A stretch of 64,000 nucleotides of DNA. Source: Accumulibacter sp. (GTDB lineage: Bacteria; Pseudomonadota; Gammaproteobacteria; Burkholderiales; Rhodocyclaceae). The notes beneath the pieces are model-generated. The model was not told the DNA's origin. It saw only the letters and a list, made by a program, of their open reading frames with translations, and did not search any database. Of this stretch, positions 25,411 to 47,742 are shown piece by piece. The stretch spans positions 38,421-102,420 of the forward strand of contig NZ_JAMTDQ010000042.1 of assembly GCF_023806635.1 (NCBI RefSeq), given 5' to 3'. Made by a program: the position numbers and the translations under genes. Positions within the stretch are counted from its first letter, which is position 1; each line of letters opens with the position of its first letter.

Positions 25411-25417
25411 CTTGTGC

Positions 25418-27103
25418 TCAGTGCCTTTCTCGCACGAGGGAATCGCCTGCGAGCAGCGCACGGTAAATCTGGTCCATGCGCGTTGCACCTGCCGCGGCGG
25501 AATGCCATTTGACGGCAAAATCCCTGCTGCGCCGACCGATCTCACGCCGCTTGCCGGGGTCGGCGATGAGCTCGCGCAGCACGGCCTCCACCGTGTTCGG
25601 GGTGGCGCTGATGATCGGCAGCTCTTCGGCGTACTCGGGGAGTTCCTCGCGGACGCTCTCGAGCCATTCGGGACGGATGAAGCAGATGACCGGTTTGGCC
25701 AGCATCATCGCTTCACGGACATTGGCGCCGAACCAGCCAAAGGTCAGCATGTCCAGGAAGATGTCGGCCTGCGCCTGCAGGAAACGGACTTCCTTGTTGG
25801 GAATGCCGGTTGGCTCGATCAGCTCGAGCATCATACCCTCGCCACGCAGGCGCTCGAGCAGGGGAAGATAAACGTGGGTGGACTTGATGTTGACTCCATC
25901 GCTGCGGGTCCGCTCGTCCCGGTGCCCGACCGCGTGATAAAGACGCACGCCGCCATCCGGCAGTGGTGGCAGGAGGTACTGCTCCGGAATCTCGATCTCC
26001 GGATGCCAGAATCCGGGATCGAGGCAATAGAATTCCGGGACCTCATGGACCCTGGGATCGTCGTTGCAATCAACCCGGTTGCCGCCCAGAGTGCACTGAT
26101 AATCGGCTACGGAGTTCCTGAACCACCCCCAGGCGAGGTTGCGATCGTCACTGCACACGGTCGGCTCATGCTGCCAGCGACAGATGGAGCAGACTGGCTC
26201 CGGCCCCCATCTGGAAAAGGCTGTTTGCGAAACACCGTCCAGGCAGCCGTTGTGCGAATAGACCAGCTTCTTGCCGAGTGCCTTGAGAAGATGGATTTCT
26301 CCGTTCTCTCCCAGGCGCCGCGCTGCAGCCGACTGGACATTCCAGCCGAAGGCAATGCCGTGGGCGTTGGCAAAATGGAAGACGTCGTAGCCATACAGGG
26401 CGGAAAGGTAGAAATCCAGTTCCCCTTCGAGACTCAACGCGATATTGCCGCCGAGGTGGAAATCCTCGCCGTGGTAGTAAATCCAGTTGGTCGGGTTGGT
26501 GTCCCAGTTATAGACGTCGGCCTTCCACCCGAGCGGACGCAGGGCTCGCGAGAGATACCACACGTTGTAGTAGGACTGGCCGCAGAAAAGCACTCGGCAG
26601 GATGCCAGCGCAGCGAACGCCGGCCTGAGTGCGTGCGCAGTGCTGTGGAGAAAGGCAAGTTCCGCCAGCAAGTCGTTCGCTGCGGGGGGGGCCGGCGGAT
26701 CGGCCGTCAGGCCGGCACTTGAGCGGACCACGCGGCGAAGTTCGCGGGCATGGCGATCTGCGCCCGGGACGTTCGCTGATCCCTTGGCGCCAACCGCGAC
26801 GCGGAAGGCCTCGACGCGACGCGGAAGATCGTGCAGAAAGCCCACGAACGCCAGCAGTTCCGCCTTCAGTCCGGTCTTCAGTTCAGCCTCCAGCTCGGTC
26901 TTCAGCTGGGCCTTCAGCTCGGACTCGAGTTCGGCCTTCAGCTCGGCCTTGAGCTGGGCCCGGATCTCGAGTTCGAGTTCGGCCTTGATGTCCGGCTTCA
27001 ACGACGCGCTCAGCCTGTTCTTCAGCGCTTCCTTGACTTCATCGGGAACGAGGCCGACGCCGGCACGCGCGGCGCGTCTGACGAGGCGATGGTACGGACT
27101 CAA
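25418..27103 (-). CDS. Putative glycosyltransferase with N-terminal Glu/Lys/Leu/Ala four-residue repeat helix
   Basis: 561 residues. Residues 39-84 are nearly pure E-L-K-A-type repeats with a 4-residue period, predicted to form one long charged helix. The rest is a GT-like fold: SCRVLFCGQSYYNVWYLSRA, YHGEDFHLGGNIALSLEGE, YSHNGCLDGVSQTAFSRWG and the donor-side MMLAKPVICFIRPEWLESV. A cysteine cluster, CSIC plus a later Cys, in the middle could bind metal. It sits between the ATPases and the WbqC gene. The GT assignment rests on the C-terminal half; the helix may place it at a complex or membrane. Confidence 0.68.
   Translation of the reverse strand: MSPYHRLVRRAARAGVGLVPDEVKEALKNRLSASLKPDIKAELELEIRAQLKAELKAELESELKAQLKTELEAELKTGLKAELLAFVGFLHDLPRRVEAFRVAVGAKGSANVPGADRHARELRRVVRSSAGLTADPPAPPAANDLLAELAFLHSTAHALRPAFAALASCRVLFCGQSYYNVWYLSRALRPLGWKADVYNWDTNPTNWIYYHGEDFHLGGNIALSLEGELDFYLSALYGYDVFHFANAHGIAFGWNVQSAAARRLGENGEIHLLKALGKKLVYSHNGCLDGVSQTAFSRWGPEPVCSICRWQHEPTVCSDDRNLAWGWFRNSVADYQCTLGGNRVDCNDDPRVHEVPEFYCLDPGFWHPEIEIPEQYLLPPLPDGGVRLYHAVGHRDERTRSDGVNIKSTHVYLPLLERLRGEGMMLELIEPTGIPNKEVRFLQAQADIFLDMLTFGWFGANVREAMMLAKPVICFIRPEWLESVREELPEYAEELPIISATPNTVEAVLRELIADPGKRREIGRRSRDFAVKWHSAAAGATRMDQIYRALLAGDSLVRERH
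26852..26989 (-). repeat. 12-bp-period tandem coding repeat (four-residue helix repeat)
   Basis: Read on the minus strand, GAG-CTG-AAG-GCC-like units recur imperfectly about ten times and encode ELKA, ELES, QLKT, ELEA and GLKA variants. The unit is in frame, so copy-number change by slippage would lengthen or shorten the helix without breaking the gene. Confidence 0.8.
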
Positions 27104-27127: not shown

Positions 27128-27832
27128 TCATCTTACCGCGAGCAGCGTGCCGACTCCAGCCTTGCCGACATTCGCCAACGAATCAACGATGGAAAGACCC
27201 GGCACGAAGTCCTCCGCTCCCTTTTGTCGATATACTGGGTGTTGGTAGCGTTGGTAGGCAAGCGAGATGCCGGCCCGCGCGAACGCCTGATCGTCCTGAT
27301 AGCCGGAGGCCCCCCCGCCGCACAGGTAGCAACTGCCATCGAGCCTGCGTGTCAGGCTGATAAGCAGATCGCTTGCCTGCCCGTCGCAGCCAAGCGCCGA
27401 CGACGGCACGCAGTGGTCGTGCCGCAGTCCAACCTGGTCAGCTATCGCCCTGATCACCGCCATGTTGTACCGCGCCAGGTTGTTCTCCGGCGAGAGTATC
27501 AGCGGTGCAAGCCAGTCCATGGTTTCGCTGTAGAACGGCGCCCTCGAGTAGTTTGCGGCCAACGTCTTCAGGAGCCTGCTGCGCCACGGCTGCTCGTCGG
27601 CCCACTCGATTTCGTTGATCGGCGCAACGCCATGGAATGCGCGGCGGATGGGCGCCGTGACCCAGCGCGCCTCGCCGGCCACGAGCATCTGCACGCGATT
27701 GCACCATACGCCGCCCTTCTTGGGGAACTGGACGTGATCGAGAAACACGAACACATCACTTCGTGCCATCTTGTCGAAATAGCCGAGCCAGGGGAAGAAG
27801 TTGGGCTGGTGGATGGCAATGGTTCTGCTCAT
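27128..27832 (-). CDS. WbqC family protein
   Basis: 234 residues. The N-terminus IAIHQPNFFPWLGYFDKMARSD is the hallmark of WbqC, followed by VFLDHVQFPKKGGVWCNRVQ and, later, ANYSRAPFYSETM and LCGGGASGYQD. WbqC proteins are found in O-antigen and capsule loci; their biochemical role is not settled, though transfer of a small group to an amino sugar has been suggested. The stop of the formyltransferase-GNAT gene lies 4 nt beyond its start (overlap at 27829-27832), so this protein is tightly coupled to the fused formyl/acetyl-transferase. Confidence 0.88.
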   Translation of the reverse strand: MSRTIAIHQPNFFPWLGYFDKMARSDVFVFLDHVQFPKKGGVWCNRVQMLVAGEARWVTAPIRRAFHGVAPINEIEWADEQPWRSRLLKTLAANYSRAPFYSETMDWLAPLILSPENNLARYNMAVIRAIADQVGLRHDHCVPSSALGCDGQASDLLISLTRRLDGSCYLCGGGASGYQDDQAFARAGISLAYQRYQHPVYRQKGAEDFVPGLSIVDSLANVGKAGVGTLLAVR

Positions 27833-29154
27833 CTGTGGTCCCCGACCAGTCCCAACACCACAACGTTCAGCGAAGTACCATTGGCGACCGCGGCTTCCTC
27901 GAAGGACCCTTCACGGACAAAGCCGGTCTTTTCGCACGCACGGATGATTGACCCGTCGTTCTCGCACGCGTGCACGAAGACTCGACGCAGTTTCAGGTCC
28001 TCGAAGCCGAAGTGGCTCAGGAGCGTGAGCGTCTCGGCAAGGGTGCCGTCGGGCGCAAAGCGGTCAGAGTGGACCCGGACCCGCAGCTCGGCGTTACGGT
28101 TCTGCCAGTCGATGTTCAGCAACTGGCAGGTGCCGGCTGCCGTATTGCCTGGCAGCTCTTCAATCACGAACAGCAGCAGATCCGCGCACCCGGGCCGCGT
28201 CGATTCGGTAGACACCCCGGGGCTCATCTGCGGCGGGTGGCACAACGGCGTCGTCCGGACCGCTGATTGGCGACGCGTGAACGGTTCTCCAGCCAGCGCC
28301 GAATCGGCATGGCTCAGGGGACGGAGCCGAACCGTATCGCTCTCCAGTACGCACTTCCCCAACGTTCCATATTTCAACGCCGCCACCTCGGCTGGGGTCA
28401 GGTGGCGATCCATGCTGATCCGCTGGCCGTTGCCGTCGAGATAGAAGGCTGGCGGTAGCGGTGGCAGCAGGGCCCTGATACGGTTGTAAATCGAGATCAC
28501 CGGCTGTCTCCAGTCGAACAGCCCATCATCGGGCGTTCGCCGGCGGCAGTAGTTGGCTGCCCGTTCGTCCTGCTTCTCGGCCGTCCACCTGCCAGCGAGA
28601 ATCTTCGGCAGGTTCGCCGCGATCAGGTCGTCAGCCGCTCGCGCCATGCGCTCGGCGAGTGTCTGCGAGGTATCCGCAAAGAAAAGCGGTACCCGACGCT
28701 GGTCTATGATGGGGCCTTCGTCGATACCCGGCGTCAGTTCGTGCAGGGTCACGCCAGTCTCGACATCGCCGTTGATGATCGCCCACTGGACTGGGTTACA
28801 GCCGCGATTCCGGGGCAAGAGCGCGCCGTGGACATTGATGCCGCCGATGCGCGGCAGACTCAGAACGTCTTCCCGCACGATCATGCTGTAGGAGTTGACC
28901 CAGATCAGATCGGGAATCAGCGCAGCGACGGCAGACCTGAAACGGGGATAGTCGGTGCTACCCCATTGCGGCTGGACAAGGAACGGCACGGTCATGCGTG
29001 TGGCAAGCGCATGCAGGTCGCCGAGATACTGCGGTCTGATTGCCGCACCCACCAGCCCTGCGACGTGGCACGCCGGCAGATGGCGAAGCAGCTGGGCAAC
29101 ACCCGGGAAGTCGCCGAAAACAACGATTCGCAACACGTTCCTGATTTGCTCCAA
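27829..29154 (-). CDS. Formyltransferase-GNAT acetyltransferase fusion
   Basis: 441 residues. The N-terminal formyltransferase domain (about 1-200) has the catalytic triad pattern INVHGALLPRNRG (Asn, His) and GIDEGPII (Asp), as in N10-formyl-tetrahydrofolate-dependent sugar formyltransferases. The C-terminal GNAT domain (about 265-441) contains the LSHFGFEDLKLRRVFVHACEN and ACEKTGFVREG segments typical of acetyl-CoA-dependent N-acyltransferases. Together they could formylate one amine and acetylate another on a nucleotide amino sugar. No ATG lies near the start; TTG 29154, GTG 29136 and TTG 29133 are all possible. The C-terminus overlaps the WbqC gene by 4 nt. Confidence 0.8.
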   Translation of the reverse strand: MEQIRNVLRIVVFGDFPGVAQLLRHLPACHVAGLVGAAIRPQYLGDLHALATRMTVPFLVQPQWGSTDYPRFRSAVAALIPDLIWVNSYSMIVREDVLSLPRIGGINVHGALLPRNRGCNPVQWAIINGDVETGVTLHELTPGIDEGPIIDQRRVPLFFADTSQTLAERMARAADDLIAANLPKILAGRWTAEKQDERAANYCRRRTPDDGLFDWRQPVISIYNRIRALLPPLPPAFYLDGNGQRISMDRHLTPAEVAALKYGTLGKCVLESDTVRLRPLSHADSALAGEPFTRRQSAVRTTPLCHPPQMSPGVSTESTRPGCADLLLFVIEELPGNTAAGTCQLLNIDWQNRNAELRVRVHSDRFAPDGTLAETLTLLSHFGFEDLKLRRVFVHACENDGSIIRACEKTGFVREGSFEEAAVANGTSLNVVVLGLVGDHR

Positions 29155-29202
29155 GTGTTCGCCGGCAGTCGCGAGCGAGGCTGCACGACTTCAATCGTGC
29201 TT

Positions 29203-30621
29203 CTACGGCCGCCGCTGCCGTCGCGGTCCCTGACTTGAGGTTCTCTCTCCCAGTGCCTCCCCCGAAATGAATCCTTCCAGGTACGTCCTGAGGTCCTCCA
29301 AACTGCCACGAGCCGTCGCGGCGGGTTCCCCGCCATCGTGCGCCGCCCGGTCTTCCCCGCTGTGCCGGGTCGGCGTGACATCGGATGGAGCACTGACGGC
29401 TTCGCGAAGCCCCAGGCCGTCAAAGCCGATCGACTCCCGCCGGCCCCACGCGGCGAGCGACTCGACTCGACGACACAGCTCGACGCAACCCGCCTCGAGT
29501 GCGTCGTCGGCTGGCGCTGGCAAGCCGTGTGCCAACCGGTAGCGGACCATCGACCACTTCCGGCGCATCTCGTCGTCCTCCGGCTCCGCCTGCAGCCAGC
29601 TCTTGCCGCCCACACTTTCGAACACCCTCAAGACGTCAAGCTCGACGCCGACGTGATCGAGAAGTGCGCTCACTTCTGCGGCCGGTAGCCGCCATTGGCG
29701 GCCCAGTATGGCCTCGCAGATCCGCCACAGCTGTGTCTCGTGGAGGCGCGAAAGCTCGAGGAACAGGCTCGCGAAGCGCCTCCCGTTCCACAGGTAATCG
29801 AGCGTCTCGAAGGTCTTGAAGTCGATTGATCGCAGGAACCTGATCGACGTCGCCGTGCCGGCGAAGTTCTCGCGGTCCCACTGCTCGAGCGCGTCGTCGT
29901 AGAGCCGCATCGTCGCCCGGGCCCGGCCAAAGGCGCAGCGGAAGACGCGCTGACGCGGCGGCATGGCGCGTGACTGCCACCATCCTGGATGCGTCAGGAT
30001 CTGCAGACACGGATCGCTGGCATCGTTCAGCACCTCGGCCAGGCGACGAAAGCGCCAGTATCCATTGGAGTCGGAACAGTACGGCACCTCGGTCTTGAAC
30101 CGCCTCGAGTAGCAGTTGACCAGACCGCCGTACCGGTCGGACTCACAGCTGAGATGAAACGCAGTCGGATTGTGAAAGCTGAAGGCAGCTGGACGCCTGC
30201 CGAGGAAGTGCTCGAGCAGCCCGGCCTCGCGGTCGACCTGATCATGCAACTCCTCCTCCGAGCGCGTCGAATGGAAGGCTGCGTCGAAGTGCAGGCCAAC
30301 GTCGTGACCGAACGCGAGCAGCCGATTCAGGATCTCGATCTGGCCACGTTCGAGCAGATTGTAGAACTCGCTGTGCAGGTTCACGAAGAAGGTCGACCGC
30401 AGCCCTTCCTCGTGCTCGGCCCGGCCAACTGCGAGCGCCCGATTCAAGGAATAGTCGCAGTCGTGGCGCCAGAGGACGAAGCGTTCGCCCCACGGAATGC
30501 AGCCGTAACTGGCAGGGGAGTACGACGACAGGCAAAGCCGCAGGAGATCACGATAAGCCTCGACCGTGAAATCCTCGTTGCGCGGGACGGCATGCACCGG
30601 CCGGTTATCCACCGATATCAT
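29203..30621 (-). CDS. Polysaccharide deacetylase-like (NodB-fold) protein
   Basis: 472 residues. LWRHDCDYSLNRAL supplies the Asp pair of the NodB metal site, and GHDVGLHFDAAFH a following His; later ILTHPGWWQ gives another His. The order H-D-D, H, H is that of carbohydrate deacetylases, but the sequence is divergent and the usual HTxxH is not clear. About 200 further residues with no assigned domain and a charged, low-complexity C-terminus follow. It lies next to the formyltransferase-GNAT fusion and may unmask an amine for those enzymes; this is inferred. Confidence 0.65.
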   Translation of the reverse strand: MISVDNRPVHAVPRNEDFTVEAYRDLLRLCLSSYSPASYGCIPWGERFVLWRHDCDYSLNRALAVGRAEHEEGLRSTFFVNLHSEFYNLLERGQIEILNRLLAFGHDVGLHFDAAFHSTRSEEELHDQVDREAGLLEHFLGRRPAAFSFHNPTAFHLSCESDRYGGLVNCYSRRFKTEVPYCSDSNGYWRFRRLAEVLNDASDPCLQILTHPGWWQSRAMPPRQRVFRCAFGRARATMRLYDDALEQWDRENFAGTATSIRFLRSIDFKTFETLDYLWNGRRFASLFLELSRLHETQLWRICEAILGRQWRLPAAEVSALLDHVGVELDVLRVFESVGGKSWLQAEPEDDEMRRKWSMVRYRLAHGLPAPADDALEAGCVELCRRVESLAAWGRRESIGFDGLGLREAVSAPSDVTPTRHSGEDRAAHDGGEPAATARGSLEDLRTYLEGFISGEALGERTSSQGPRRQRRP

Positions 30622-30675
30622 GCGGCTCCCTTCATTCCCGGAACGACAACGCAGCCACGACGTGTAGAATGGTCG

Positions 30676-31848
30676 TCAGTCATCTCGGGAAACCGCCTTG
30701 AAACCATTGTCGGAAATGGCATAGATATCGGCTGCGACACCGCGCGCCCGCAGTCGGCCAATCACGGTCGGATGATACTGCTGACTCAGGGTGAGTATTA
30801 TCGAACTCGCGCCTTGCAGGACCTTGTCGTCGGGCCGACCGATTGCCAGCGGTGTATTCGGCATCAGACGCCCCTGAATGACGACGTTGTCGTCAACGAT
30901 CGATAAGCGGTCATACCATTCGGCCCGAAACTCGGACCAATACAGCAGGGCGGTCGCAGACAAACCGGCGCCATACAGAACCACTCGATCGCTTCTGTCA
31001 GCGATGAACGCACAGACTTGCGAGATCACTCGCCTGAGGTTGCCGATCCTCGCCAGAGGGTCGTAGGTATTGTCTGTGCCGTGGGCAAACGCACAGATCA
31101 GGCTCGGCTCGCCGGCGCCGTTGAGAAACCGGATCTCGAAGCCGCGACTCGATATCATCGCCGCCAGCGACCTGCGACAGAAGTAGTGCGGGTGTTCGTG
31201 CGCGAACATGTTCAAGACACCCAGATGCAGAAAGTGCTGCGCATTCGGCACCTGCACGATCGCGATGCCGTTGCCCTTGAGGTTGTGCTGCAGTTGCTCG
31301 AAGAAGGCATCGATGTCGACGATGTGCTCCAGGTTGAAGCGCGAAATGATGCGATCGAAATCTCCCTCAACCACGGTAAGACCATAGTACCCGTCGATGA
31401 AATGGACATCGCCGCAGTCCTCCGCACCCGGATTGATCGCCGTACAGCGATATCCCTGGTCCAGGAAGTAGCGCATTTGCTGCACATCGTCACAGCCGAT
31501 CTCCAGGAGACTGTGGCTGCCGGGTTGGCAGAAAACCCGCAAGACCTCGTCGAACGGCTCGCGATAGAAAACGTTCAACGTCTCCAGCGTGCGGAAGGGA
31601 TAAAGATTGTAATAATCCGCGTACAGCCTCGCGGAAAAATCCGGGTCGATCTGCGTCAGGAACACGTGCTGACACTCCGAGCAGGCTGCCGCCCGGATTG
31701 CCCGTGCCGGAACATCGGCTGCGCGAGCGCTCTCGACCGGGAACAGGATCGCCGGCAACACGTCACCGGAGGGAATCTCGATGATTTCCGAGGAGCCGCA
31801 GGCGGGACAGGCGTTCCTGCTGATCGGATCGGGGCCGCAACTAGCCAT
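30676..31848 (-). CDS. SAM-dependent methyltransferase with N-terminal zinc site (C-methyltransferase type)
   Basis: 390 residues. A four-cysteine putative zinc site (C14-x2-C17 and C56-x2-C59) precedes a Rossmann methyltransferase domain, then a C-terminal Rossmann-like domain with VVLYGAGLSATALLYWSEF. This architecture is shared with sugar C-methyltransferases such as TylC3/NovU relatives. Motif I reads EIGCDDVQQ, so the usual third glycine is lost, which may weaken SAM binding. The start overlaps the ATP-grasp gene by 8 nt (31841-31848). Methyl transfer to a sugar or its acyl group is inferred from context. Confidence 0.8.
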   Translation of the reverse strand: MASCGPDPISRNACPACGSSEIIEIPSGDVLPAILFPVESARAADVPARAIRAAACSECQHVFLTQIDPDFSARLYADYYNLYPFRTLETLNVFYREPFDEVLRVFCQPGSHSLLEIGCDDVQQMRYFLDQGYRCTAINPGAEDCGDVHFIDGYYGLTVVEGDFDRIISRFNLEHIVDIDAFFEQLQHNLKGNGIAIVQVPNAQHFLHLGVLNMFAHEHPHYFCRRSLAAMISSRGFEIRFLNGAGEPSLICAFAHGTDNTYDPLARIGNLRRVISQVCAFIADRSDRVVLYGAGLSATALLYWSEFRAEWYDRLSIVDDNVVIQGRLMPNTPLAIGRPDDKVLQGASSIILTLSQQYHPTVIGRLRARGVAADIYAISDNGFKAVSRDD

Positions 31849-32893
31849 AATAATGCTCGGTCAGGTTTCTCAGGATAAGCCCCCTGCCGTAGGGGAAGCC
31901 TGCTTCCAGCTTCTGGTGCAGCAGATGCCTGCGTATCAGGAGGTCCGGCTCGTTGTATCCAACCATCGCCCGCAGGGAGGTCGTTCCCGAGAATCTCGGG
32001 TTGATCTCGAACACCTTCACCACACCCTTCACCAGCCGGCACTGTATGTTCAGGGGGCCTCTTGCACCGATCGCCCGGGCGATCGCGCTGCACTGTTCGG
32101 AAACCTCGGGGAAGCGGTCGATCTCTCCCTGGCTGATTCCCGAACTGATGATCAGGCGTGGCCCGAGTTCTCCTCTTCCGGTCGAATTCGGGACGCTCGT
32201 GCGTATGCTCAGTTGCCCGGTCAACGCCCGCCGGACAGCAATCGAATTGACGTACTCGCCATCCATGTCATGCAGGACACCGACGGTGTACTCCGCATCG
32301 GGAGTGCCGACGTATTCCTGGATGAAGAACCTGATGTCGTTGGCGCCCAGGTTGAGGAACTGGGCCAAGCCGCAGAGTTCTCGCGGGTTCTGCGCGATGT
32401 AAACGTTGGCCGAACCGCCGCCGCCCAACGATGGCTTGACGACGACGGGAAACCAGTCGATCGATGCCAGATCCGCCGTTCCTTCCACGACCGCGAAGCG
32501 GGGCGGCGCGAAGCCGAGCTCGAGAAGGCGCCTGTTGGTCTTTTCCTTGTCCATGCAGAGGTCTATGACAGGCGTCGGATTGACCGGGAGGAAGACGCCG
32601 CGCCGTTCGATCTCGTCGCGATTTCTGGCGAAGAGCCTGAGCTCGGGCTCACAGCCATGGAACAGGGCCCGTATGCGGTGCCGTTCGATGAGGGCAAGAA
32701 GCTCATCGAGATAGCGCGGGGAACTGGCAAGCGGCAGCACGGCGCGCTGGTCCACCATGTCGAACTGCGGGCACTTCGGATTGGCATCGGCCCCGACAAT
32801 CCAGTAGAGCCCATTGCCGGCGAGACGCAGGGCCTTGAGGATCTGTTCGCCGTGACCGCCACCACCCATCGCTGTAACCAGAATCCTGATCAT
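31841..32893 (-). CDS. ATP-grasp superfamily ligase (carbamoyl-phosphate-synthase-like fold)
   Basis: 350 residues. The preATP-grasp domain begins ILVTAMGGGGHGEQILKAL; the ATP-grasp domain has VVVKPSLGGGGSANVYIA, the metal-binding FEINPRFSGTT, and the peptide/amine acceptor region after it. These enzymes join a carboxylate to an amine or thiol with ATP. The gene overlaps the metallophosphoesterase by 4 nt at its start and the methyltransferase by 8 nt at its end. It may attach an acyl group to an amino sugar or amidate a uronate; the substrate is unknown. Related genes are common in surface-glycan loci. Confidence 0.85.
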   Translation of the reverse strand: MIRILVTAMGGGGHGEQILKALRLAGNGLYWIVGADANPKCPQFDMVDQRAVLPLASSPRYLDELLALIERHRIRALFHGCEPELRLFARNRDEIERRGVFLPVNPTPVIDLCMDKEKTNRRLLELGFAPPRFAVVEGTADLASIDWFPVVVKPSLGGGGSANVYIAQNPRELCGLAQFLNLGANDIRFFIQEYVGTPDAEYTVGVLHDMDGEYVNSIAVRRALTGQLSIRTSVPNSTGRGELGPRLIISSGISQGEIDRFPEVSEQCSAIARAIGARGPLNIQCRLVKGVVKVFEINPRFSGTTSLRAMVGYNEPDLLIRRHLLHQKLEAGFPYGRGLILRNLTEHYYG

Positions 32894-33612
32894 CGGGTGT
32901 TGCCTCTCTCGGCTTCCATGACCGTGCCTACCAGTGAAGCCGCCCTGCGGGCGAACAGACGGATGACCGAGGAGTGTACCAGATTCCGGGAATCCTCAGC
33001 CAGCGAGGCAAGCGATCCGCCAATGTCGAAGCGATACAGCCTGGCCATCTGGACTGTGGGATCGAAGGTCGCGAAAGAGCCGTAACGTCCGTCATCCCGC
33101 GGCAGACCACAGCTGCCGACGTTGACAAAAGTGGTTCCGCCCACCGCACGGATGAACGGGTAGTGACTGTGTCCCATGAAGACAAAACTCTCGCTGAGAA
33201 CGAATCGGCCGAGATCGCTGTCTGGGTAAAGATACTCGTTCGTGAAATCGGCCGGGCTTCCGTGTACGAACAGCAGTTCCACTGCGCCATGAGAGCGTCG
33301 ACAGTGTGTCGGCCAGGATCCTATGAAGGCTGACTGCTTTCCGCTCAACCGGCTGCGGATCAGCTGATGCTGGTATGCCGCCTCGCGCTGTGGATCCGTG
33401 GTGCCGCTCAGCAGCAGGCTCTCATGGTTGCCGAGAATACAGGTAACCGTCGTTCCCATCCGCTCCAGGTCGTCGACTACCTCGACAGCTGGAATGTATC
33501 CAAGGGCATCGCCGAGAAAGTAGAACTGTTGCGCGCCGAGCCTCCCGAGATGATCGATGGCTGCACGAAAGGCCGCGGTGTTGCCGTGTGCATCCGAGAG
33601 AATGCCGATCAC
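32890..33612 (-). CDS. Calcineurin-like metallophosphoesterase
   Basis: 240 residues with all five blocks: ILSDAHGN, FLGDALGYIP, LGNHES, FVHGSP and MGHSHYP, and the later NVGSCGLPRDD. It hydrolyses a phosphomono- or diester. The start at GTG 33612 is chosen because it gives the family's usual first residues (IGILSDAHGN) and a GTGA overlap with the preceding asparagine-synthase stop; an in-frame GTG at 33630 would overlap that gene more. A 4-nt overlap also joins it to the ATP-grasp gene, so the three are one translated block. Its substrate could be a sugar phosphate or nucleotide by-product. Confidence 0.88.
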   Translation of the reverse strand: MIGILSDAHGNTAAFRAAIDHLGRLGAQQFYFLGDALGYIPAVEVVDDLERMGTTVTCILGNHESLLLSGTTDPQREAAYQHQLIRSRLSGKQSAFIGSWPTHCRRSHGAVELLFVHGSPADFTNEYLYPDSDLGRFVLSESFVFMGHSHYPFIRAVGGTTFVNVGSCGLPRDDGRYGSFATFDPTVQMARLYRFDIGGSLASLAEDSRNLVHSSVIRLFARRAASLVGTVMEAERGNTR

Positions 33613-35486
33613 AGGTACGCCTTCATCCACGCTTCGACATTGAGCAACGACCAGATCAACAAGCGCTGATTCGCTTCGCCGCGCATGTGCTGCTCCACCA
33701 GTGGCAACAGCGCTTTGCGGTCGAGAACTTCGTAGATGCGGGCATTTCTGTCCAGCAGGCTGCGCTTCACGAAATCTATGCTCTCACCTTTGAACCAACT
33801 GGCGTCCGGTCCGGAGAAACCCTGCTTCAGGGCGCTGGTGACGGACTCAGGAAGGTGTCTGGCCATCACGTCCCTGAGAATCTGTTTGCCATCCCGCGTC
33901 CGTTCGAAATACCTGGACGACTTGGACCCGGGCTCGTTTTCGTTCATGCGCACGACTTGCGCGAGGTTGTTCAGCTTCAATGAGACCGGGCAGCGCATGG
34001 CAAAGTCCACCAGGTCGTTGTCGAGAAACGGTACCCGACTCTCAAGTCCGTGCGCCATGCTGAGCTTGTCCTCGACGAGCAGCAGCCCGTGGAGAAACGT
34101 CTTGGCCTCGAAGTACAGCGAGTGGTTGATGTAGTCGACCGGGGAATAGAGACTGTCGGAGTGATGCCGGAAGACATCACGGAAGATGTCACGTGTCCAC
34201 ACGTGCCGCACCTCACCCCAGACCGGCGCGAAGACCTCGCGCAGGCGCTGATTCGGCATCAGTCGCTGCCAGAACTGGTAGTACTTGTCGATGTATCGCT
34301 CGAAGTCGTCGTTGACCACGGCCCGATAGTAGCGCCAGGGGTAACCGCCGAAGATTTCGTCACCGCCCGCTCCGGAGAGGACCACCTTGACGAATTTCGA
34401 CGCGAGATGGGCCGCGTAATAGTTCGGGTAGCTCTGTCCGACACGGGGTTCTTCAAGATGCCAGGCGAGCTTGGGCAGGATGCGCTCCATGTCGCCTGCC
34501 TTCAGCACCATCTCGTAGTGCTCAGTCTTGAAGCAATACGACATGTACTCGGCGTTGCTGCGCTCGTCGAACGCAAGCTCCAGACCGGACGCCGAATTGA
34601 GATCGAAGCCGCAGGTGAAGGTCTTGATGTACGGGTACGACCGGGCAGCGATGGCGGTGATGGATCCGGAGTCCATGCCGCCGCTGAGGTAACTGCCCAG
34701 TTCGACATCCGTCACCAGCTGGCGATTGACAGCCTGTCGGAAGAGGCGATCGAGCTCGCCCTCGTAGGCCAGCTTGTCCACCTTGCCGGAGGGGTCGCGA
34801 AAAGCGAAATCCCAGTACTGAAAGAACTTCAGTCCGGGAGCGCTGCAGGCGGGATCCAGGAGTGCGTAGTGGCCAGCCGGGCACAACCGGACCTCCTGCA
34901 GGAGGGTCCGGTCGGTAAAGATGTTCTGGAAGGTGAAATACTCGAACAAGGCCTCCTTGTCGAGCTGTCGTGGAAATCCCGGCTGGGCGATGATGCCCTT
35001 CTGTTCCGATGCGAAGGCCAAGGTGTTTCCGACCAGCGCATAGTAGAGGGGCTTCACCCCATAGCGATCGCGCGCCAGCATCAGCTGGCGTTGGTGCCGG
35101 TCCCACAAGGCGAAGGCGAACATGCCGTTGAGGCGGGCCAACGCGCCGGATCCCCAGGCGGCCAGCGCGTTGAGGACGACCTCCGTGTCCGACTGCGAGC
35201 GGAATTGGAGCCCCTCGGCTTCGAGTTCGGCGCGCAACTCGCGGTAGTTGTATATCTCTCCGTTATAGGCGATGACGTAACGATGGTCGGCGGAGAGCAT
35301 CGGCTGATGCGCAGCGGCGGTGAGATCAATGACCGCCAGGCGGCGGTGTCCGAATCCGACGCAGCCATCGACCCACTGCCCTTCGCCATCCGGTCCGCGA
35401 TGCGCGATGGCATCGGTCATGCACTTCAGGATGGCAGGTGAGGCCGGCCGTCCATCAAGATTCACGAGGCCGGCGATGCCGCACAT
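33609..35486 (-). CDS. asnB: Asparagine synthase-type amidotransferase, copy 3
   Basis: 625 residues. Cys2 (MCGIAGLVN), HRGPDGEGQWV and YNGEIYNYRELRAE form the glutaminase; SGGMDSG is the PP-loop and SGAGGDEIFGGYPW follows. It is the most canonical of the three copies here. The gene ends in a 4-nt overlap with the phosphoesterase and begins 3 nt after a sugar aminotransferase, so it belongs to the same translated block. Free asparagine synthesis is possible, but the context favours amidation of a nucleotide uronic acid or a glycan carboxylate. Confidence 0.88.
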   Translation of the reverse strand: MCGIAGLVNLDGRPASPAILKCMTDAIAHRGPDGEGQWVDGCVGFGHRRLAVIDLTAAAHQPMLSADHRYVIAYNGEIYNYRELRAELEAEGLQFRSQSDTEVVLNALAAWGSGALARLNGMFAFALWDRHQRQLMLARDRYGVKPLYYALVGNTLAFASEQKGIIAQPGFPRQLDKEALFEYFTFQNIFTDRTLLQEVRLCPAGHYALLDPACSAPGLKFFQYWDFAFRDPSGKVDKLAYEGELDRLFRQAVNRQLVTDVELGSYLSGGMDSGSITAIAARSYPYIKTFTCGFDLNSASGLELAFDERSNAEYMSYCFKTEHYEMVLKAGDMERILPKLAWHLEEPRVGQSYPNYYAAHLASKFVKVVLSGAGGDEIFGGYPWRYYRAVVNDDFERYIDKYYQFWQRLMPNQRLREVFAPVWGEVRHVWTRDIFRDVFRHHSDSLYSPVDYINHSLYFEAKTFLHGLLLVEDKLSMAHGLESRVPFLDNDLVDFAMRCPVSLKLNNLAQVVRMNENEPGSKSSRYFERTRDGKQILRDVMARHLPESVTSALKQGFSGPDASWFKGESIDFVKRSLLDRNARIYEVLDRKALLPLVEQHMRGEANQRLLIWSLLNVEAWMKAYL

Positions 35487-35489
35487 GGA

Positions 35490-36635
35490 TCAGCCGATCC
35501 GGTGCAGCGACTCGACGACATGAGCGTAGTCGGCTTCCGTCATCCGGTTGTGAAGCGGGATGGCCATCGTCTGGTCATTGCAGTCCCGAGCGGCCGGGAA
35601 GTCTCCGGGGCGCAGGCCAAAGCGGCCGGCGTAGTAGCCAAGCATGTGAACGGCATGCGTGCCCGGTCGAGTGGCGACGCCGGCGGTCTGCAGGCGCTCC
35701 ATGATCTCGTTGCGCGGCGCTGGCGCCATGGCGGGGTCGACGTAGAGGACGTAGGCTTGCCAGGCGTGCTGGCCCTGAGACGGTGTCACCGGCGGTTGCA
35801 GCCATTCGATGTCGGCCAGCGACCGGCTGTAATAGGCGGCCCGAGCGGCACGTTCGGCGATGAAGCGATCAAGCTTCGCCAGCTGCACCAGCCCGACTGC
35901 CCCCTGCAGATCGGTCATCCGGTAGTTGTAGCCGAGCAGGTTGAACTCCGGCAGGAGATAGGGGCGCGGACCGTTGTGGCGCTGTTCTTCGGAGATGCTC
36001 GCGCCATGGTTGCGCAGCATGTTGGCGGTCGCAGCCAGTACCGCGTCGTTGGTGGTCACCATCCCGCCCTCGCCGGTGGTGATGGACTTCCGCGGATGAA
36101 AGGAGAATGCTGCTGCCAAACCGAGCGAGCCTGCCGGCTTGCCGTTGTAGCTGGCCCCGGCGGCACAGGCCGCGTCCTCGATGATCGGGACATGCGCGGG
36201 CAGTGCCGCGCGCAAGCGGTCGATGTCCGCACACAACCCGAACAGGTGCACCGCAACGACGGCCTTTGTCCGCGGTGTGAGCCGTTGCACGACATCGCCG
36301 ACATCGAGGTTGTAGGTCCTACGGTCGACGTCGGCAAATATGGGCGTTGCTCCACAGTAGACGACGACGTTGGCGGTTGCCACCCAGGTGAACGCCGGGA
36401 CGATCACTTCATCGCCCGGACCGATGCCCATCGCCGCCAGGATCAGGTGGAGCCCGGTTGTACAGCTGGTGGTGGCCAAGGCGTGTGCAACCGCATGCCG
36501 CACGGCAAACGCCTGTTCAAAAGCGGCGACTTGCGGCCCTTGAGTCAGCCAACCGGTCAGCAGCGGCTCGCGCGTTGCCTGCCACTCTTCGTCGCCGGTA
36601 CACGGAAGCGAGATGGCGATCGATCGCGTGACCAT
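35490..36635 (-). CDS. DegT/DnrJ/EryC1/StrS family nucleotide-sugar aminotransferase
   Basis: 381 residues. PLP-dependent aminotransferase fold: TTSCTTGLHLIL at the cofactor phosphate site, IEDAACAAGASY (Asp contacting the pyridine nitrogen) and FSFHPRKSITTGEGGM with K183 as the Schiff-base lysine. It aminates a keto-sugar nucleotide. The ATG at 36635 is chosen over a TTG at 36641 because it overlaps the stop of the epimerase upstream by one base (TGATG). Its location beside the epimerases suggests it makes an amino sugar different from that of the WbpE homologue at 41766. Confidence 0.9.
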   Translation of the reverse strand: MVTRSIAISLPCTGDEEWQATREPLLTGWLTQGPQVAAFEQAFAVRHAVAHALATTSCTTGLHLILAAMGIGPGDEVIVPAFTWVATANVVVYCGATPIFADVDRRTYNLDVGDVVQRLTPRTKAVVAVHLFGLCADIDRLRAALPAHVPIIEDAACAAGASYNGKPAGSLGLAAAFSFHPRKSITTGEGGMVTTNDAVLAATANMLRNHGASISEEQRHNGPRPYLLPEFNLLGYNYRMTDLQGAVGLVQLAKLDRFIAERAARAAYYSRSLADIEWLQPPVTPSQGQHAWQAYVLYVDPAMAPAPRNEIMERLQTAGVATRPGTHAVHMLGYYAGRFGLRPGDFPAARDCNDQTMAIPLHNRMTEADYAHVVESLHRIG

Positions 36636-37615
36636 CAGCAACTGTCCCTGTTGGCGTCGCGCCAGGCGATGAGCTTCTCGAGTCCTTCACGCAGTCCGTA
36701 GCGGTACCTGAAACCGAGGTCGGCCTCGGCTTTCGCCGGACAACCGATGCGATTCTGGACCAGCCGTCGAGCGTCATCGGCGCTGTACGGCTTGTAGGTG
36801 ACCTCCAGGCTGGAGCCCTTCAGTTCGAGGATGAGGTCGCACAACTGCTTGATGCTGGTCTGCACGCCGGAACCGACGTTGTAGAACTGATCGGTGGCCT
36901 CGGCCTGCAGCGCCAGGACGTTGCAGCGGGCAACATCTTCAACGTCGATGAAATCATAGGCCTGCGAGCCGTCGCCGTTGATCACCGGCGCTTCATTGGC
37001 GTCGATCTTGTTCAGCATGATCGGGATCACGCCCGTATAGGCAGCCGTCTGGTCCTGATGTGGTCCATAGACGTTCATGTAGCGCAGTCCGACGTAGGAA
37101 AGTCCGTAGCGGTCGTGAAACGCCCGGCACATGGCTTCGCCGGCTATCTTCGAGGCACCGTAGAAGTTCCGGTTGGCGAAGGGATGCGCCTCCGTCATCG
37201 GCACCTCGACCGCATCTCCATAAACCGATGCGGATGACGAGTAGACCAGGCGCTTCACGTTGTTCCGGACGCACGCCTCGAGAACGTTGAAGGTGCCTTC
37301 GATGTTGACGTGAAAGGCCGTGCGCGGGAAGTCCTTGCAATGCAGCAGCCACATCGCCGCCAGGTGAATGACGTAGTCACAGCCGTGCATGGCGTCGTCG
37401 AGGAGATCGACCTCGCGGATGTCAGCGCCGTTCTGGTAAAGGCGACACCTGCAATCCGGAAAGTGCGGGGCGAGATGGTTTCGCTTGCCGCGCGCAAAGT
37501 TGTCGTAGATCAGTACTTCGCCGACGTCGGTCTTGAGCAACTCTCCCACCACATGGCTGCCGATGAAACCGGCACCCCCGATCACCAGCACGCGCGCATC
37601 GTTCAACGGATTCAT
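36635..37615 (-). CDS. NAD-dependent epimerase/dehydratase (extended SDR), first of four
   Basis: 326 residues. Cofactor motif GGAGFIGSHV, active-site YSSSASVYG and YGASK (YxxxK), and the C-terminal SDVEDVAR-type FIDVEDVARCN region are intact. It resembles UDP-glucose/UDP-GlcNAc 4-epimerases, but UDP-GlcNAc-type dehydratases are not excluded. It is 60 nt downstream of the next SDR gene and overlaps the aminotransferase by one base, which suggests that the two act in sequence, for example 4-epimerisation or dehydration followed by amination. Confidence 0.87.
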   Translation of the reverse strand: MNPLNDARVLVIGGAGFIGSHVVGELLKTDVGEVLIYDNFARGKRNHLAPHFPDCRCRLYQNGADIREVDLLDDAMHGCDYVIHLAAMWLLHCKDFPRTAFHVNIEGTFNVLEACVRNNVKRLVYSSSASVYGDAVEVPMTEAHPFANRNFYGASKIAGEAMCRAFHDRYGLSYVGLRYMNVYGPHQDQTAAYTGVIPIMLNKIDANEAPVINGDGSQAYDFIDVEDVARCNVLALQAEATDQFYNVGSGVQTSIKQLCDLILELKGSSLEVTYKPYSADDARRLVQNRIGCPAKAEADLGFRYRYGLREGLEKLIAWRDANRDSC

Positions 37616-37675: not shown

Positions 37676-38737
37676 TCACGCACCCGCCTGCGTCATCAGC
37701 TTGTCGTGCCTCGCAATGCTGCGGCCGATCAGTTCCCGATTGGCCCTGGTCCAATCGACGGTGCGGCGCAGCCCGTCGCGGATGTCCACCTGCGCGCCGA
37801 AGCCCAGCTCACGGGCAGCCTTCTCGGTGGAGGCGAAGCGCTTGCCGGAACGATCCCAGTCGCGGGCGGGCCGCAGGTCGAGCGGGGTGGTGTTGCCCGT
37901 GTACTCGTTGATGATGGTTGCCAGTTCCAGAATGCTCGTTTCGCAGCCGGTGGCCAGGTTGTAGACCTCGCCGGCGCATCCGCGCAGCGCGCAGGCCATC
38001 AATCCACGCGCCATGTCCTCGACGAAAATGAAGTCGCGGCTGGCGTTGCCGCCATTGTCGAGTGGCAGCGCCTCGCCGTGCAGGGAACGCCAGATGAAGG
38101 TGGGGGTCACGTTGCGCCAGACGGTGTGCACGGTACCACGCCATCGCCCGGCACCGAGAATCTCTCGCGGACCGTAGACGTTCGAGAATCGGGCCTTGAC
38201 GAAGGGCAGACCATGCCGCTGGAAATAGTAGTTGCCGTACAGTTCGCCAATGATCTTCGAGATCGAGTAGGGGCTGTCGTGGTAGAGCGTTACTGGCTGA
38301 TCCTCGGTCGTTGCCGTTGGAGCATCGTACGTCTTCTCGGCGACTGCACAGGCCGCCGCCGCGTAAACGACCTTCTGCAGTCCCGTGATGTCCTTCAGGC
38401 GGTCGAAGAGTTTGAGTGAGGTGTAGGTGTTGTTGTCGTGGTCGGCAAACGGGTCGGCAATCGACGACTGGTTGCCGTGGTAGCAGGCGAGGTGGAAGAC
38501 GTAGTCCAGGTCGTCGTCCAGGCCGGCCAGGATGCGGTCGTCGGTGATCGAGCCAAAGACGAAACGCACGCGCGCATCGGCGGGAATGTTGGCCACGTCC
38601 GAAGACAACAGGTTGTCGACGATGACGATCTCGGCGGGCTCCTGGTCGAGGATCTGATGCACGAGGTTGCTGCCGACGAAACCGGCACCGCCGACCACCA
38701 GTACCCGGGAACCGCAGAAGCTTGCACTACTTGTCAT
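37676..38737 (-). CDS. NAD-dependent epimerase/dehydratase (extended SDR), second of four
   Basis: 353 residues. GGAGFVGSNL and YSISK are present. The usual serine-containing strand (SSxxVYG) reads YAAAACAVAEKTY, so the catalytic Ser/Thr region is altered and the mechanism may differ from that of an ordinary epimerase. C-terminal IFVEDMARGL and LATGCETSI fit the extended SDR fold. It lies between two other SDR genes, all on the minus strand with short gaps. Confidence 0.82.
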   Translation of the reverse strand: MTSSASFCGSRVLVVGGAGFVGSNLVHQILDQEPAEIVIVDNLLSSDVANIPADARVRFVFGSITDDRILAGLDDDLDYVFHLACYHGNQSSIADPFADHDNNTYTSLKLFDRLKDITGLQKVVYAAAACAVAEKTYDAPTATTEDQPVTLYHDSPYSISKIIGELYGNYYFQRHGLPFVKARFSNVYGPREILGAGRWRGTVHTVWRNVTPTFIWRSLHGEALPLDNGGNASRDFIFVEDMARGLMACALRGCAGEVYNLATGCETSILELATIINEYTGNTTPLDLRPARDWDRSGKRFASTEKAARELGFGAQVDIRDGLRRTVDWTRANRELIGRSIARHDKLMTQAGA

Positions 38738-42941: not shown

Positions 42942-43574
42942 TCAGTGCCCATGCTGCCCGGCGGCTGACGGTGCCTGCGGGTTGCCCTCGATGTCCTGCA
43001 GGCAGCTGACCTGCCCTTCCCGGAGCCGATACCGCACCGCTGTCGCCGGGCAGCATGCTTCTCCTTCCCCGCTGAGCGGCAGATCGAGGCGTTCTCCGTG
43101 CTGGCTGATCCAGCCGATCTGTCGCGCGGGAACGCCCGCCATCAGTGCGTAGGCGGGTACGTCCCGGTTGACCACCGCGCCGGCAGCGACAAAGGCGTAC
43201 TCGCCGATCGTCACGCCGCAGACGATGGTGCAGTTGGCGCCGAGGGTGGCGCCCCGTCTCACCAGCGTGTCGCGGTACTCATGCTTGCGCGATACATGGC
43301 TGCGCGGGTTGTAGACGTTGGTGAAGACCATGCTCGGTCCGCAGAAGACATCGTCCTCGAGCGTCACGTTGTCATAGACCGAAACGTTGTTCTGGATCTT
43401 CACGTTGTTGCCGATGATCACCCTGTTGCCTATGAAGACATTCTGGCCCAGCGAGCAATCGCTGCCGATGCGTGCCTGAGCACAGATATGTACCCATTGC
43501 CAAATGCGAGTATTGTCGCCCACTACCGCACCGCTGTCGATGATCGCCGTGGAATCTGCCGTAAAACCGTTCAT
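42942..43574 (-). CDS. wbpD: WbpD-like left-handed beta-helix acetyltransferase
   Basis: 210 residues. Hexapeptide repeats run through the first 150 residues ([39 protein letters not shown] and so on), with the long insertion loop [21 protein letters not shown]-acetylation of UDP-GlcNAc3NA on C3 is the known reaction of this subfamily. A C-terminal extension of about 55 residues after the helix (ending GQHGH) is longer than in typical members. It is 70 nt upstream of the WbpE homologue and 13 nt after the FAD enzyme. Confidence 0.9.
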
Positions 43575-44655: not shown

Positions 44656-44662
44656 CAACGGG

Positions 44663-45715: not shown

Positions 45716-45905
45716 CGGTTGGACTCCCTGTTGGCAGGCGACCCGGAGTCCTGCAGCCGTCTCTCGGCTGGTGAGCAACCGGGTATCGCGCAAAGGCACG
45801 CATGATACCGGCAGGGGGGTGGCTCTTCAAGAACGCGGTGCCAACCATGCCAACCAGGAGGGCGCCTTGCGACGAGCACGACTCGCGGCCCGCGCGCGGG
45901 TACTC

Positions 45906-46784: not shown

Positions 46785-46974
46785 CGTGAACAGCCCTTCG
46801 GTTGAGGGAAAAGGGCGAGTGTAAGGCTTTTCCCGGCGGGGTTGCTCGTCGCCGGAATCAGTGGCAGTCGTTCGCCGACGACGATCGGCACTGCCCAGCG
46901 TCAGGAAAGGTGAGGTAACATCGAGCCCCGTTGGCATTTTGCGCCGGCGCACGGCGAAGGTGATGGGCGCGCAG

Positions 46975-47736: not shown

Positions 47737-47742
47737 AGCCGC

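What the first reader, a model, noticed from the sequence alone, without database searches (positions are those of the whole stretch)
27128..36635. Translationally coupled glycan-modification cassette, possibly making an end cap
Aminotransferase, AsnB, phosphoesterase, ATP-grasp ligase, methyltransferase, deacetylase-like, formyltransferase-GNAT and WbqC genes run in one direction. AsnB-phosphoesterase-ATP-grasp-methyltransferase overlap by 4, 4 and 8 nt, and formyltransferase-GNAT overlaps WbqC by 4 nt. Bordetella O antigens are uronamide polymers whose ends carry formylated, acylated and methoxylated amino sugars, and are exported by an ABC transporter. By analogy this cassette may build a terminal cap with amide, formyl, acetyl and methyl groups.
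Basis: inference. Interest (0 to 1): 0.75.

Follow-up and report, generated by a model that had tools for sequence, protein, structure and literature searches.

The report
Bordetella-type O-antigen cluster with acylation module
A wastewater bacterium (very probably Candidatus Accumulibacter) carries a gene cluster like the one Bordetella uses to build and export an amide-rich surface sugar chain, plus a conserved but uncharacterised pair of genes that probably attaches an unusual chemical group to an amino sugar, perhaps at the chain's end.

Summary
The genes and overlaps are as described. The locus is homologous, not merely analogous, to the Bordetella wbm O-antigen locus: three of the four genes directly upstream are WbmH, WbmG and WbmF relatives (60-72% identity). 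One of the two export ATPases has a C-terminal domain related to the cap-binding domain of Aquifex Wzt.

The 'eight-gene cassette' is modular. An SDR/DegT core, often with AsnB, recurs without the rest. A phosphoesterase lies directly before the ATP-grasp ligase in 34 of 42 loci from many phyla; all eight classes occur together in 2 of 42.

Amide and formyl are supported as predictions. Formylation varies: the formyltransferase half is broken or truncated in two of the four Accumulibacter cassettes read (window, L048, L049, L136). Methyl is the weakest prediction.

Best account: the cassette makes and decorates a 4-amino uronamide sugar of this O antigen, likely a terminal cap. The phosphoesterase/ATP-grasp pair is the new element, probably an amide-forming acylation module of unknown substrate. 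New variant of a known kind.

The parts
44663..45799 (-). GFO/IDH/MocA oxidoreductase, WlbA-like (UDP-GlcNAcA 3-dehydrogenase role inferred)
   Evidence: Pfam GFO_IDH_MocA; NCBIfam models far below cut-off; next to hexapeptide and DegT genes in related loci
42942..43574 (-). hexapeptide N-acetyltransferase, WlbB/WbpD-like (role inferred)
   Evidence: Pfam Hexapep; neighbourhood
41766..42872 (-). DegT aminotransferase 2, WlbC/WbpE-like (role inferred from neighbourhood only)
   Evidence: Pfam DegT; neighbourhood
40633..41769 (-). UDP-GlcNAc 2-epimerase family, WlbD-like (role inferred)
   Evidence: TIGR00236 (wecB) above cut-off; Pfam Epimerase_2
39698..40636 (-). WbmH relative (SDR)
   Evidence: PDB 2q1w E 3.7e-156; 71.5% of 309 aligned columns identical
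38750..39685 (-). WbmG relative (SDR)
   Evidence: PDB 2pzk E 1.9e-142; 68.1% of 307 columns
37676..38737 (-). WbmF relative (SDR)
   Evidence: PDB 2pzj E 6.6e-138; 60.2% of 347 columns
36635..37615 (-). SDR1, 4-epimerase-like; proposed to make the 4-keto sugar
   Evidence: best PDB relatives 6dnt and UDP-sugar 4-epimerases; a relative in 30 of 42 ATP-grasp loci
35490..36635 (-). DegT1, C4-aminotransferase-like
   Evidence: perosamine synthetase 266 bits and ArnB 256 bits against the C3-enzyme WbpE 155 bits; a relative in 31 of 42 loci
33609..35486 (-). AsnB1 amidotransferase, proposed uronamide-forming
   Evidence: Pfam and NCBIfam Asn synthase; close relatives (50-91%) in 17 of 42 loci
32890..33612 (-). 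metallophosphoesterase (MPE), GTG start at 33612
   Evidence: Pfam Metallophos_2; metal-site motif residues invariant in 33 sequences; immediately upstream of ATP-grasp in 34 of 42 loci
31841..32893 (-). ATP-grasp ligase (NF009402 family)
30676..31848 (-). class I methyltransferase-like protein with atypical SAM loop
   Evidence: Methyltransf_23 E 2.4e-13; EIGCDDV loop
29203..30621 (-). CE4/NodB-fold deacetylase-like domain (about 1-250) plus a helical, low-confidence C-terminal extension
28360..29154 (-). formyltransferase half of the fusion (split point chosen by me)
   Evidence: PF00551; ArnA best in PDB
27829..28356 (-). GNAT acetyltransferase half of the fusion
   Evidence: PF13302; stand-alone in L049
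27128..27832 (-). WbqC-like protein
   Evidence: PF08889 E 1.2e-59; 3 copies in the genome
25418..27103 (-). glycosyltransferase-like protein
   Evidence: weak GT hits; a relative in 7 of 42 loci, among them all 5 with ABC1 and ABCm
24235..25545 (-). Wzt-like ATPase 1 with C-terminal cap-binding-type domain (ORF; true start probably internal)
   Evidence: Wzt_C E 4e-4; Aquifex Wzt CBD 8dky/6o14 E 0.0014/0.0017, full-length 8dku E 4.3e-6
23018..24349 (-). Wzt-like ATPase 2 with unassigned C-terminal domain (ORF; true start probably internal)
   Evidence: ABC_tran; no Pfam hit for its C-terminal 159 aa
22220..23005 (-). Wzm-like ABC-2 permease
   Evidence: PF01061 E 7e-17
17448..19349 (-). second AsnB paralogue
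   Evidence: Pfam and NCBIfam Asn synthase
15536..17431 (-). third AsnB paralogue; relative sits beside WbmHGF in Trinickia

Best explanation
This is an ABC-exported O-antigen (or similar surface glycan) cluster of the Bordetella wbm type. WlbA-D-like enzymes and WbmH/G/F relatives supply UDP-2,3-diacetamido-L-galacturonate for the chain (WbmH/G/F homology shown; roles taken from the Bordetella work). The cassette makes and decorates a further amino sugar. SDR1 and DegT1 put an amino group on C4. AsnB1 turns the carboxyl into an amide. The deacetylase frees an N-acetylated position. The formyltransferase-GNAT acylates amines with formyl or acetyl. The ATP-grasp ligase joins a carboxylic acid to an amine through an acyl phosphate, and the phosphoesterase removes a phosphate from the acid, the product or a nucleotide by-product. 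A methyltransferase-like protein may add a methyl group. The sugar is most likely placed at the non-reducing end, where a Wzt ATPase reads it with its C-terminal domain before export by Wzm. Gene families, order, homology and co-occurrence are shown; all substrates, the order of steps and the terminal position are inferred.
For: WbmH/G/F relatives upstream at 60-72% identity (chain mapping from PMC2279256, passages and Table 2). Same synteny through the ABC genes in L048, L049, L059 and L136-L137; Trinickia has WbmHGF-type genes about 3.5 kb after the ABC genes. Wzt C-terminal domain related to the cap-binding Aquifex Wzt domain (cap reading by that domain in PMC9445017, passages). DegT1 nearest to C4-aminotransferases. 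ArnA-type formyltransferase. ATP-grasp fold with PylC among the nearest. Phosphoesterase metal motifs invariant in 33 sequences. Phosphoesterase immediately before ATP-grasp in 34 of 42 loci. WbmS-like proteins in 19 of 42 ATP-grasp loci; three were checked as PF22537 and one, L050, matches Bordetella WbmS 3hft at E 2.3e-69. PMC3849452 (passages) says mid-locus wbm genes are predicted to modify the terminal sugar, and its O1-type variable region wbmO-wbmZ includes wbmS by name. An ATP-grasp protein of another Pfam family is needed for a terminal peptidylamido sugar in C. difficile (PMC5207246, passages).
Against: No chemistry is known for this glycan. The core recurs in loci with no such ABC genes: relatives of ABC1 and ABCm are seen in only 5 of 42 loci, so the cassette is not a cap maker by nature. 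Three AsnB paralogues leave open which one serves the repeat and which the end. The second ATPase's C-terminal domain has no Pfam match (not searched further). The Wzt_C match is below Pfam's cut-off (20.8 against 30.4 bits). The SAM loop of the methyltransferase is atypical. PylC is tied in Z with biotin carboxylases, so the fold does not single out an amide ligase. The Bordetella wbm cap-gene sequences could not be fetched, so cassette-to-cap-gene homology was tested only through WbmS and WbmF/G/H.
Confidence: 0.6

Rival explanations
1. The cassette decorates the repeating unit, or an in-chain second sugar, rather than the chain end: amide, formyl and the ATP-grasp acyl group occur all along the polymer.
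For: The SDR1-DegT1-phosphoesterase-ATP-grasp core, with or without AsnB, occurs in clusters without these ABC genes in Chloroflexi, Bacteroidota and others. Three AsnB genes in the window.
Against: In the Accumulibacter, Sedimenticola, Trinickia and Cupriavidus loci the cassette is joined to Wzt genes whose first ATPase has a cap-binding-type domain. The formyltransferase half has been lost in two Accumulibacter cassettes while the compared neighbours stay open, which fits a variable end group but does not prove it.
Confidence: 0.27
2. The modified amino sugar is a linker, either between core and O antigen or to a protein, as with the N-seryl uronamide of the Wbp/Vim pathway.
For: P. gingivalis and T. 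forsythia use a Wbp-derived sugar with amino acyl (and in P. gingivalis an amide), with AsnB-like WbpS and deacetylase-like VimE, as a linking sugar (PMC7468200, passages). Bordetella has a linker region to which wbmA-C are predicted to contribute (PMC3849452, passages).
Against: No sortase-type family was hit by the window proteins scanned; not every window gene was scanned and the genome was not searched for sortases. VimA is FemAB/acetyltransferase-like in that paper, not ATP-grasp.
Confidence: 0.08
3. An ordinary operon of unrelated sugar enzymes whose phosphoesterase is housekeeping (dinucleotide or nucleotide clean-up) and plays no part in acylation.
For: Nearest solved relatives of the phosphoesterase are a metallophosphoesterase and an uncharacterised protein (3rqz, 3qfm).
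Against: 34 of 42 immediate adjacencies across phyla; the 42 loci form 33 clusters at 80% ATP-grasp identity.
Confidence: 0.05

Closest known systems
Bordetella wbm O-antigen locus (WbmF/G/H backbone pathway, WbmS in the variable region, ABC export)
   Same: WbmH, WbmG, WbmF relatives in a row; ABC export; annotated wbm loci of one serotype group with formyltransferase, aminotransferase, methyltransferase and asparagine synthase genes (PMC12243275, passages); WbmS-like proteins in related ATP-grasp loci.
   Different: No WbmS-family gene detected in this genome, a different CE4-like protein instead, and the phosphoesterase/ATP-grasp pair. Whether Bordetella has that pair could not be tested.
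Capped O-antigen ABC transporters (Wzm/Wzt with carbohydrate-binding domain; Aquifex solved, E. coli O9a recalled)
   Same: Wzm plus Wzt with a C-terminal domain related to the cap-binding domain.
   Different: Two different Wzt-like ATPases, each with its own C-terminal domain; the second is unassigned.
Wbp/Vim linking-sugar pathway (P. gingivalis, T. forsythia)
   Same: Wbp-type 2,3-diamino uronic acid, AsnB-type amidation, deacetylase-like enzyme, further N-acylation (PMC7468200, passages).
   Different: Acylation there assigned to VimA; here ATP-grasp, GNAT and formyltransferase candidates; no link to protein anchoring seen.
C. difficile type B flagellin terminal sugar genes
   Same: An ATP-grasp protein is required for an amide-bearing terminal sugar (PMC5207246, passages).
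   Different: Different ATP-grasp Pfam family; no phosphoesterase named in the passages read; protein-linked glycan.
PylC and carbamoyl-phosphate-synthase-like ATP-grasp proteins (2pn1)

Membership tests
Bordetella wbm-type O-antigen cluster | adjacent WbmF, WbmG and WbmH genes | tested here: met
Bordetella wbm-type O-antigen cluster | supply of UDP-ManNAc3NAcA by WlbA-D-type enzymes | tested here: inconclusive
   Families present; identity to WlbA-D themselves not tested; four matches to the UDP-sugar dehydrogenase family elsewhere in the genome
Bordetella wbm-type O-antigen cluster | ABC (Wzm/Wzt) export genes in the locus | tested here: met
Bordetella wbm-type O-antigen cluster | polymer of 2,3-diacetamido-2,3-dideoxy-L-galacturonic acid or its amide | not testable with these tools
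   needs glycan analysis
WbmS-like proteins (PF22537) | match above Pfam cut-off by the window's deacetylase-like protein or elsewhere in the genome | tested here: not met
   (no PF22537 hit at E up to 5 for residues 1-250); none in the own genome, while the same model found 7 of 349 genomes
CE4/NodB-fold deacetylases | fold and conserved Asp/His metal-site candidates | tested here: met
ABC exporters of capped O antigen | Wzt C-terminal carbohydrate-binding domain | tested here: met
   first ATPase: CBD-only chains 8dky, 6o14 at E 0.0014 and 0.0017 with a 6-sequence profile; below Pfam cut-off
ABC exporters of capped O antigen | recognition of a terminal cap | not testable with these tools
   needs binding assay
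ATP-grasp superfamily | ATP-grasp fold with conserved ATP/Mg residue candidates | tested here: met
   K153, E296, N298, R300 and others invariant in 40 sequences; fold
ATP-grasp carboxylate-amine ligases | amide-forming activity | not testable with these tools
   needs enzyme assay; fold does not separate PylC from biotin carboxylase
calcineurin-like metallophosphoesterases | DxH, GD, GNH, H, H metal motifs | tested here: met
   D7 H9 G34 D35 G61 N62 H63 H117 H150 invariant in 33 sequences
sugar N-formyltransferases | Formyl_trans_N domain and best solved match a sugar formyltransferase | tested here: met
SAM-dependent sugar methyltransferases | canonical glycine-rich SAM loop | tested here: not met
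   EIGCDDV in the window protein; glycine-rich loops (EIGCGTG-like) in 7 of the 12 aligned. The Methyltransf_23 domain itself is above Pfam cut-off
Wbp/Vim linking-sugar pathway | VimA-type aminoacyl transferase and use as a protein-linking sugar | not tested
   no VimA query was run

The most novel reading that the evidence does not exclude
The phosphoesterase/ATP-grasp pair is an undescribed, horizontally spread two-enzyme acylation module that swaps with sugar N-formyltransferases on 4-amino uronamide sugars: the ligase joins a phosphorylated acid (for example phosphoglycerate or phospholactate) or an amino acid to the amine, and the phosphoesterase then removes the phosphate, giving a glyceroyl-, lactoyl- or aminoacyl-type group. 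In the window it works beside, not instead of, a formyltransferase, so one cap sugar may carry both groups.
Probability: 0.25. Interest if true: 0.68.

Novelty: new variant of a known kind. Interest (0 to 1): 0.5.

Why it matters
If right, the genes behind end-capping of uronamide O antigens can be recognised well outside Bordetella, in wastewater bacteria and other phyla, and a recurrent but uncharacterised ligase/phosphatase pair gets a testable job. It would link sequence to the rare N-acyl groups known from surface-glycan chemistry, for which (as I recall) many attaching enzymes are unassigned. For Accumulibacter, whose matrix glycans matter to phosphorus-removing sludge, it adds a specific prediction (a 2,3-diacetamido uronamide chain with a variable cap) to a recent survey that already listed UDP-ManNAc3NAcA as an accessory sugar (PMC12925313, passages).

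Tried and rejected
Rejected: the eight genes as one obligate unit. All eight classes occur in 2 of 42 loci (L048, L059; in L059 with another methyltransferase and an unfused formyltransferase), and the 13 loci reached through the deacetylase, WbmS and DegT1 anchors have no phosphoesterase or ATP-grasp relative in the stretch read.

Rejected: the deacetylase-like protein as a WbmS-family member, although the fold is shared.

Led nowhere: search for the Bordetella wbm locus itself. WbmH was sought in three families of the order (1 of 145, 0 of 120 and 1 of 200 genomes). The first hit (G812) lies at the end of a contig and its neighbourhood was not read; the last (G981) is the Trinickia contig already held as L061 (same 230,160-base length) and does carry the phosphoesterase/ATP-grasp pair. 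Two papers on Bordetella structures are not held.

Led nowhere: class-wide ATP-grasp search. 95 of 274 genomes match at E up to 0.001, but most matches lie in reading frames of about 950-1,450 aa, the size of carbamoyl-phosphate synthase. Outside the window's genome 5 places in 4 genomes fall below 1e-8, one of them (G260) in such a long frame; their neighbourhoods were not read.

Considered: whether the pair is already described. One search returned no paper; of the 6 papers listed none holds both ATP-grasp and metallophosphoesterase; of 466 papers only 12 were listed, none with either word; one search listed 25 of 148 and led to the C. difficile paper. The library lacks most subscription papers, so this is weak. 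PMC4000134 (passages) lists an ATP-grasp 'amino acyl ligase' in other sugar loci.

Not resolved: the C-terminal half of the deacetylase-like protein; the model there is of low confidence and it was not folded alone.

Weak: Fmt versus ATP-grasp exclusivity. Fmt occurs in 4 of 42 ATP-grasp loci, against 5 of 12 loci without ATP-grasp (p 0.019), 5 of 13 with the 3.4-kb contig kept (p 0.026), and 4 of 33 clusters against 5 of 12 (p 0.043). One search tried narrower sets first: 4/42 against 4/7 (p 0.009), 2/19 against 4/7 (p 0.028), 4/42 against 5/10 (p 0.008; G352, G547 and G589 left out). The two groups were sampled differently and labelled by different programs (phmmer at 1e-6, blastp at 1e-8).

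Rows dropped: from the phosphoesterase alignment L053, L054, L060, L077 (called too long; 32 of 36 kept plus the window); from the ATP-grasp alignment L063, L064 (too long) and L088 (fragment; 39 of 42 kept plus the window). Three further deacetylase-like matches in the own genome (contig C41) were not counted among the 13 loci.


Full report
WHAT WAS CHECKED. The eight genes of the finding are present on the - strand at the stated places, with the stated families (the deacetylase only by a weak Pfam hit and by fold). The overlaps are as read: 4, 4 and 8 nt in the first block, provided the phosphoesterase starts at GTG 33612 (sequence; the longest ORF starts at 33630), and 4 nt between formyltransferase-GNAT and WbqC. 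Gaps of 54 and 48 nt separate the deacetylase-like gene from its neighbours. Overlaps of this size are ordinary in operons.

WHERE IT IS. The closest named relatives are Candidatus Accumulibacter adjunctus (L048) and Ca. A. conexus (L049), with the ATP-grasp at 87 and 85% identity and the same gene order from DegT2 to the glycosyltransferase after the permease. Within the window's own genus 4 of 28 genomes carry this ATP-grasp at E up to 1e-80, own genome included, so it is an accessory trait. A recent survey lists UDP-ManNAc3NAcA among accessory nucleotide sugars of Ca. Accumulibacter (PMC12925313, passages).

THE NEIGHBOURHOOD IS BORDETELLA-LIKE BY HOMOLOGY. Before SDR1 and the cassette lie three SDR genes that match the solved Bordetella proteins WbmH (2q1w, E 3.7e-156), WbmG (2pzk, 1.9e-142) and WbmF (2pzj, 6.6e-138), with 71.5, 68.1 and 60.2% identity over the printed alignments. 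The PDB-to-protein key and the proposed conversion of UDP-ManNAc3NAcA to UDP-L-GalNAc3NAcA are from PMC2279256 (passages). Further upstream lie GFO/IDH, hexapeptide, DegT and 2-epimerase genes of the WlbA-D kind (that assignment is by family and order only). Downstream lie a glycosyltransferase-like gene, two Wzt-like ATPases and a permease.

A CAP-READING TRANSPORTER. The C-terminal domain of the first ATPase matches Wzt_C weakly (E 4e-4, below Pfam's cut-off). A six-sequence profile of it finds Aquifex Wzt best: full-length chains at E about 4e-6 and the isolated carbohydrate-binding domain at E 0.0014 and 0.0017. [quoted passage not shown] The second ATPase's C-terminal domain has no Pfam match. 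This is the main sequence evidence for an end cap.

MODULARITY. A scan of genome contigs with the window ATP-grasp gave 42 loci from many phyla; the scan uses patterns from one sequence and so favours its closer relatives. Genes were called on the match strand only and labelled by best phmmer hit at E up to 1e-6 against reference proteins, so a label means a relative, not an orthologue. Counts, all of 42: phosphoesterase immediately upstream 34, within the stretch 36. Of the 6 misses, two loci begin within 91 nt of the ATP-grasp (L072, L088) and four have about 9.9 kb of upstream sequence without it (L068, L069, L074, L089; L089 has a phosphoesterase relative on the other strand). SDR1 30, DegT1 31, AsnB of any kind 20 (close AsnB1, 50-91% identity, in 17), methyltransferase-like 28 (diverse proteins), WbmS-like 19, a second SDR type 22, deacetylase-like N-domain 9, formyltransferase 4, WbqC 5, ABC1 5, permease 5. 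All eight classes of the finding occur together in 2 (L048, L059). At 80% ATP-grasp identity the 42 loci form 33 clusters. The stretches are 4 to 21 kb, so absences are not proof.

REVERSE TESTS. Loci were sought through the deacetylase-like protein (2 of 150 and 3 of 299 genomes, own included in each), through PF22537 (7 of 349 genomes) and through DegT1 (9 of 398 genomes, own included). Together these give 13 distinct loci in 12 other genomes; none has a phosphoesterase or ATP-grasp relative in the stretch read. Of the 8 DegT1 loci outside the own genome, 7 have SDR1 and 5 have AsnB1 near it. SDR1-DegT1, often with AsnB1 and WlbB/C-like genes, is therefore a wider core, and the phosphoesterase/ATP-grasp pair is an option added to it. 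The WbmH anchor behaves differently: of its two hits one (G981, Trinickia) has the pair and the other was not read. Five of the 12 loci with enough sequence have a formyltransferase, against 4 of 42 ATP-grasp loci (p 0.019; 0.043 against 33 clusters). The groups were sampled and labelled differently, so the idea that the two modules replace each other is only a lead, and the window itself has both.

FORMYLATION VARIES WITHIN THE GENUS. The formyltransferase-GNAT fusion is intact in the window and in L048. In L049 the formyltransferase half is present only as fragments in different frames, two of them with a stop. In L136 (a single-contig genome of the same genus) its middle part (query residues 84-176) has no match. 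In both, the GNAT half is open, and the neighbouring cassette genes align over nearly their whole length. In Sedimenticola (L059) a separate formyltransferase ORF sits at the same place. So the N-formyl group is predicted for this species but is dispensable in its kin, as one expects of a variable end group.

MECHANISM PROPOSED. Shown: gene content, order, homology, transporter domain, recurrence. Inferred: SDR1/DegT1 make a 4-amino uronic sugar (DegT1 is nearer to C4- than C3-aminotransferases: perosamine synthetase 266 and ArnB 256 bits, WbpE 155); AsnB1 amidates C6; the CE4 enzyme frees an amine; the formyltransferase (best match ArnA), GNAT and ATP-grasp/phosphoesterase add N-acyl groups; the finished sugar ends the chain and licenses export.

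VERDICT. The overall kind is known. The phosphoesterase/ATP-grasp pair is the part worth bench work.

Noticed in passing
43588-44697 (-): A glycerol-3-phosphate dehydrogenase-like FAD protein (PRK12266 model 288 bits, below its 360-bit cut-off) sits inside the sugar-nucleotide operon. Its role there is unexplained; it could bear on a phospho-acid donor.
   Followed up: no
L049:13867-14325 and L136:13777-14235: Broken or internally deleted formyltransferase halves in front of open GNAT halves in two Accumulibacter relatives.
   Followed up: yes
45906-46955 (-): A glucose-1-phosphate thymidylyltransferase (RmlA, above cut-off) directly upstream of the UDP-sugar genes, although the other genes point to UDP sugars.
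   Followed up: no
L039 (G000:C41:113000-131296): Three partial relatives of the deacetylase-like N-domain, two in long open frames (943 and 1007 aa), close together in another locus of the same genome.
   Followed up: no
24235-25545 and 23018-24349 (-): Two Wzt-like ATPases with different C-terminal domains beside one permease; the arrangement is conserved in L048, L049, L059, L061 and L087.
   Followed up: partly
L061 and L087: Trinickia mobilis and a Cupriavidus MAG share ATP-grasp proteins at 90% identity or more and the same gene order from SDR1 to the permease.
   Followed up: no
46858-49898 (-): Two long ORFs upstream of RmlA without Pfam matches; possibly not genes.
   Followed up: no
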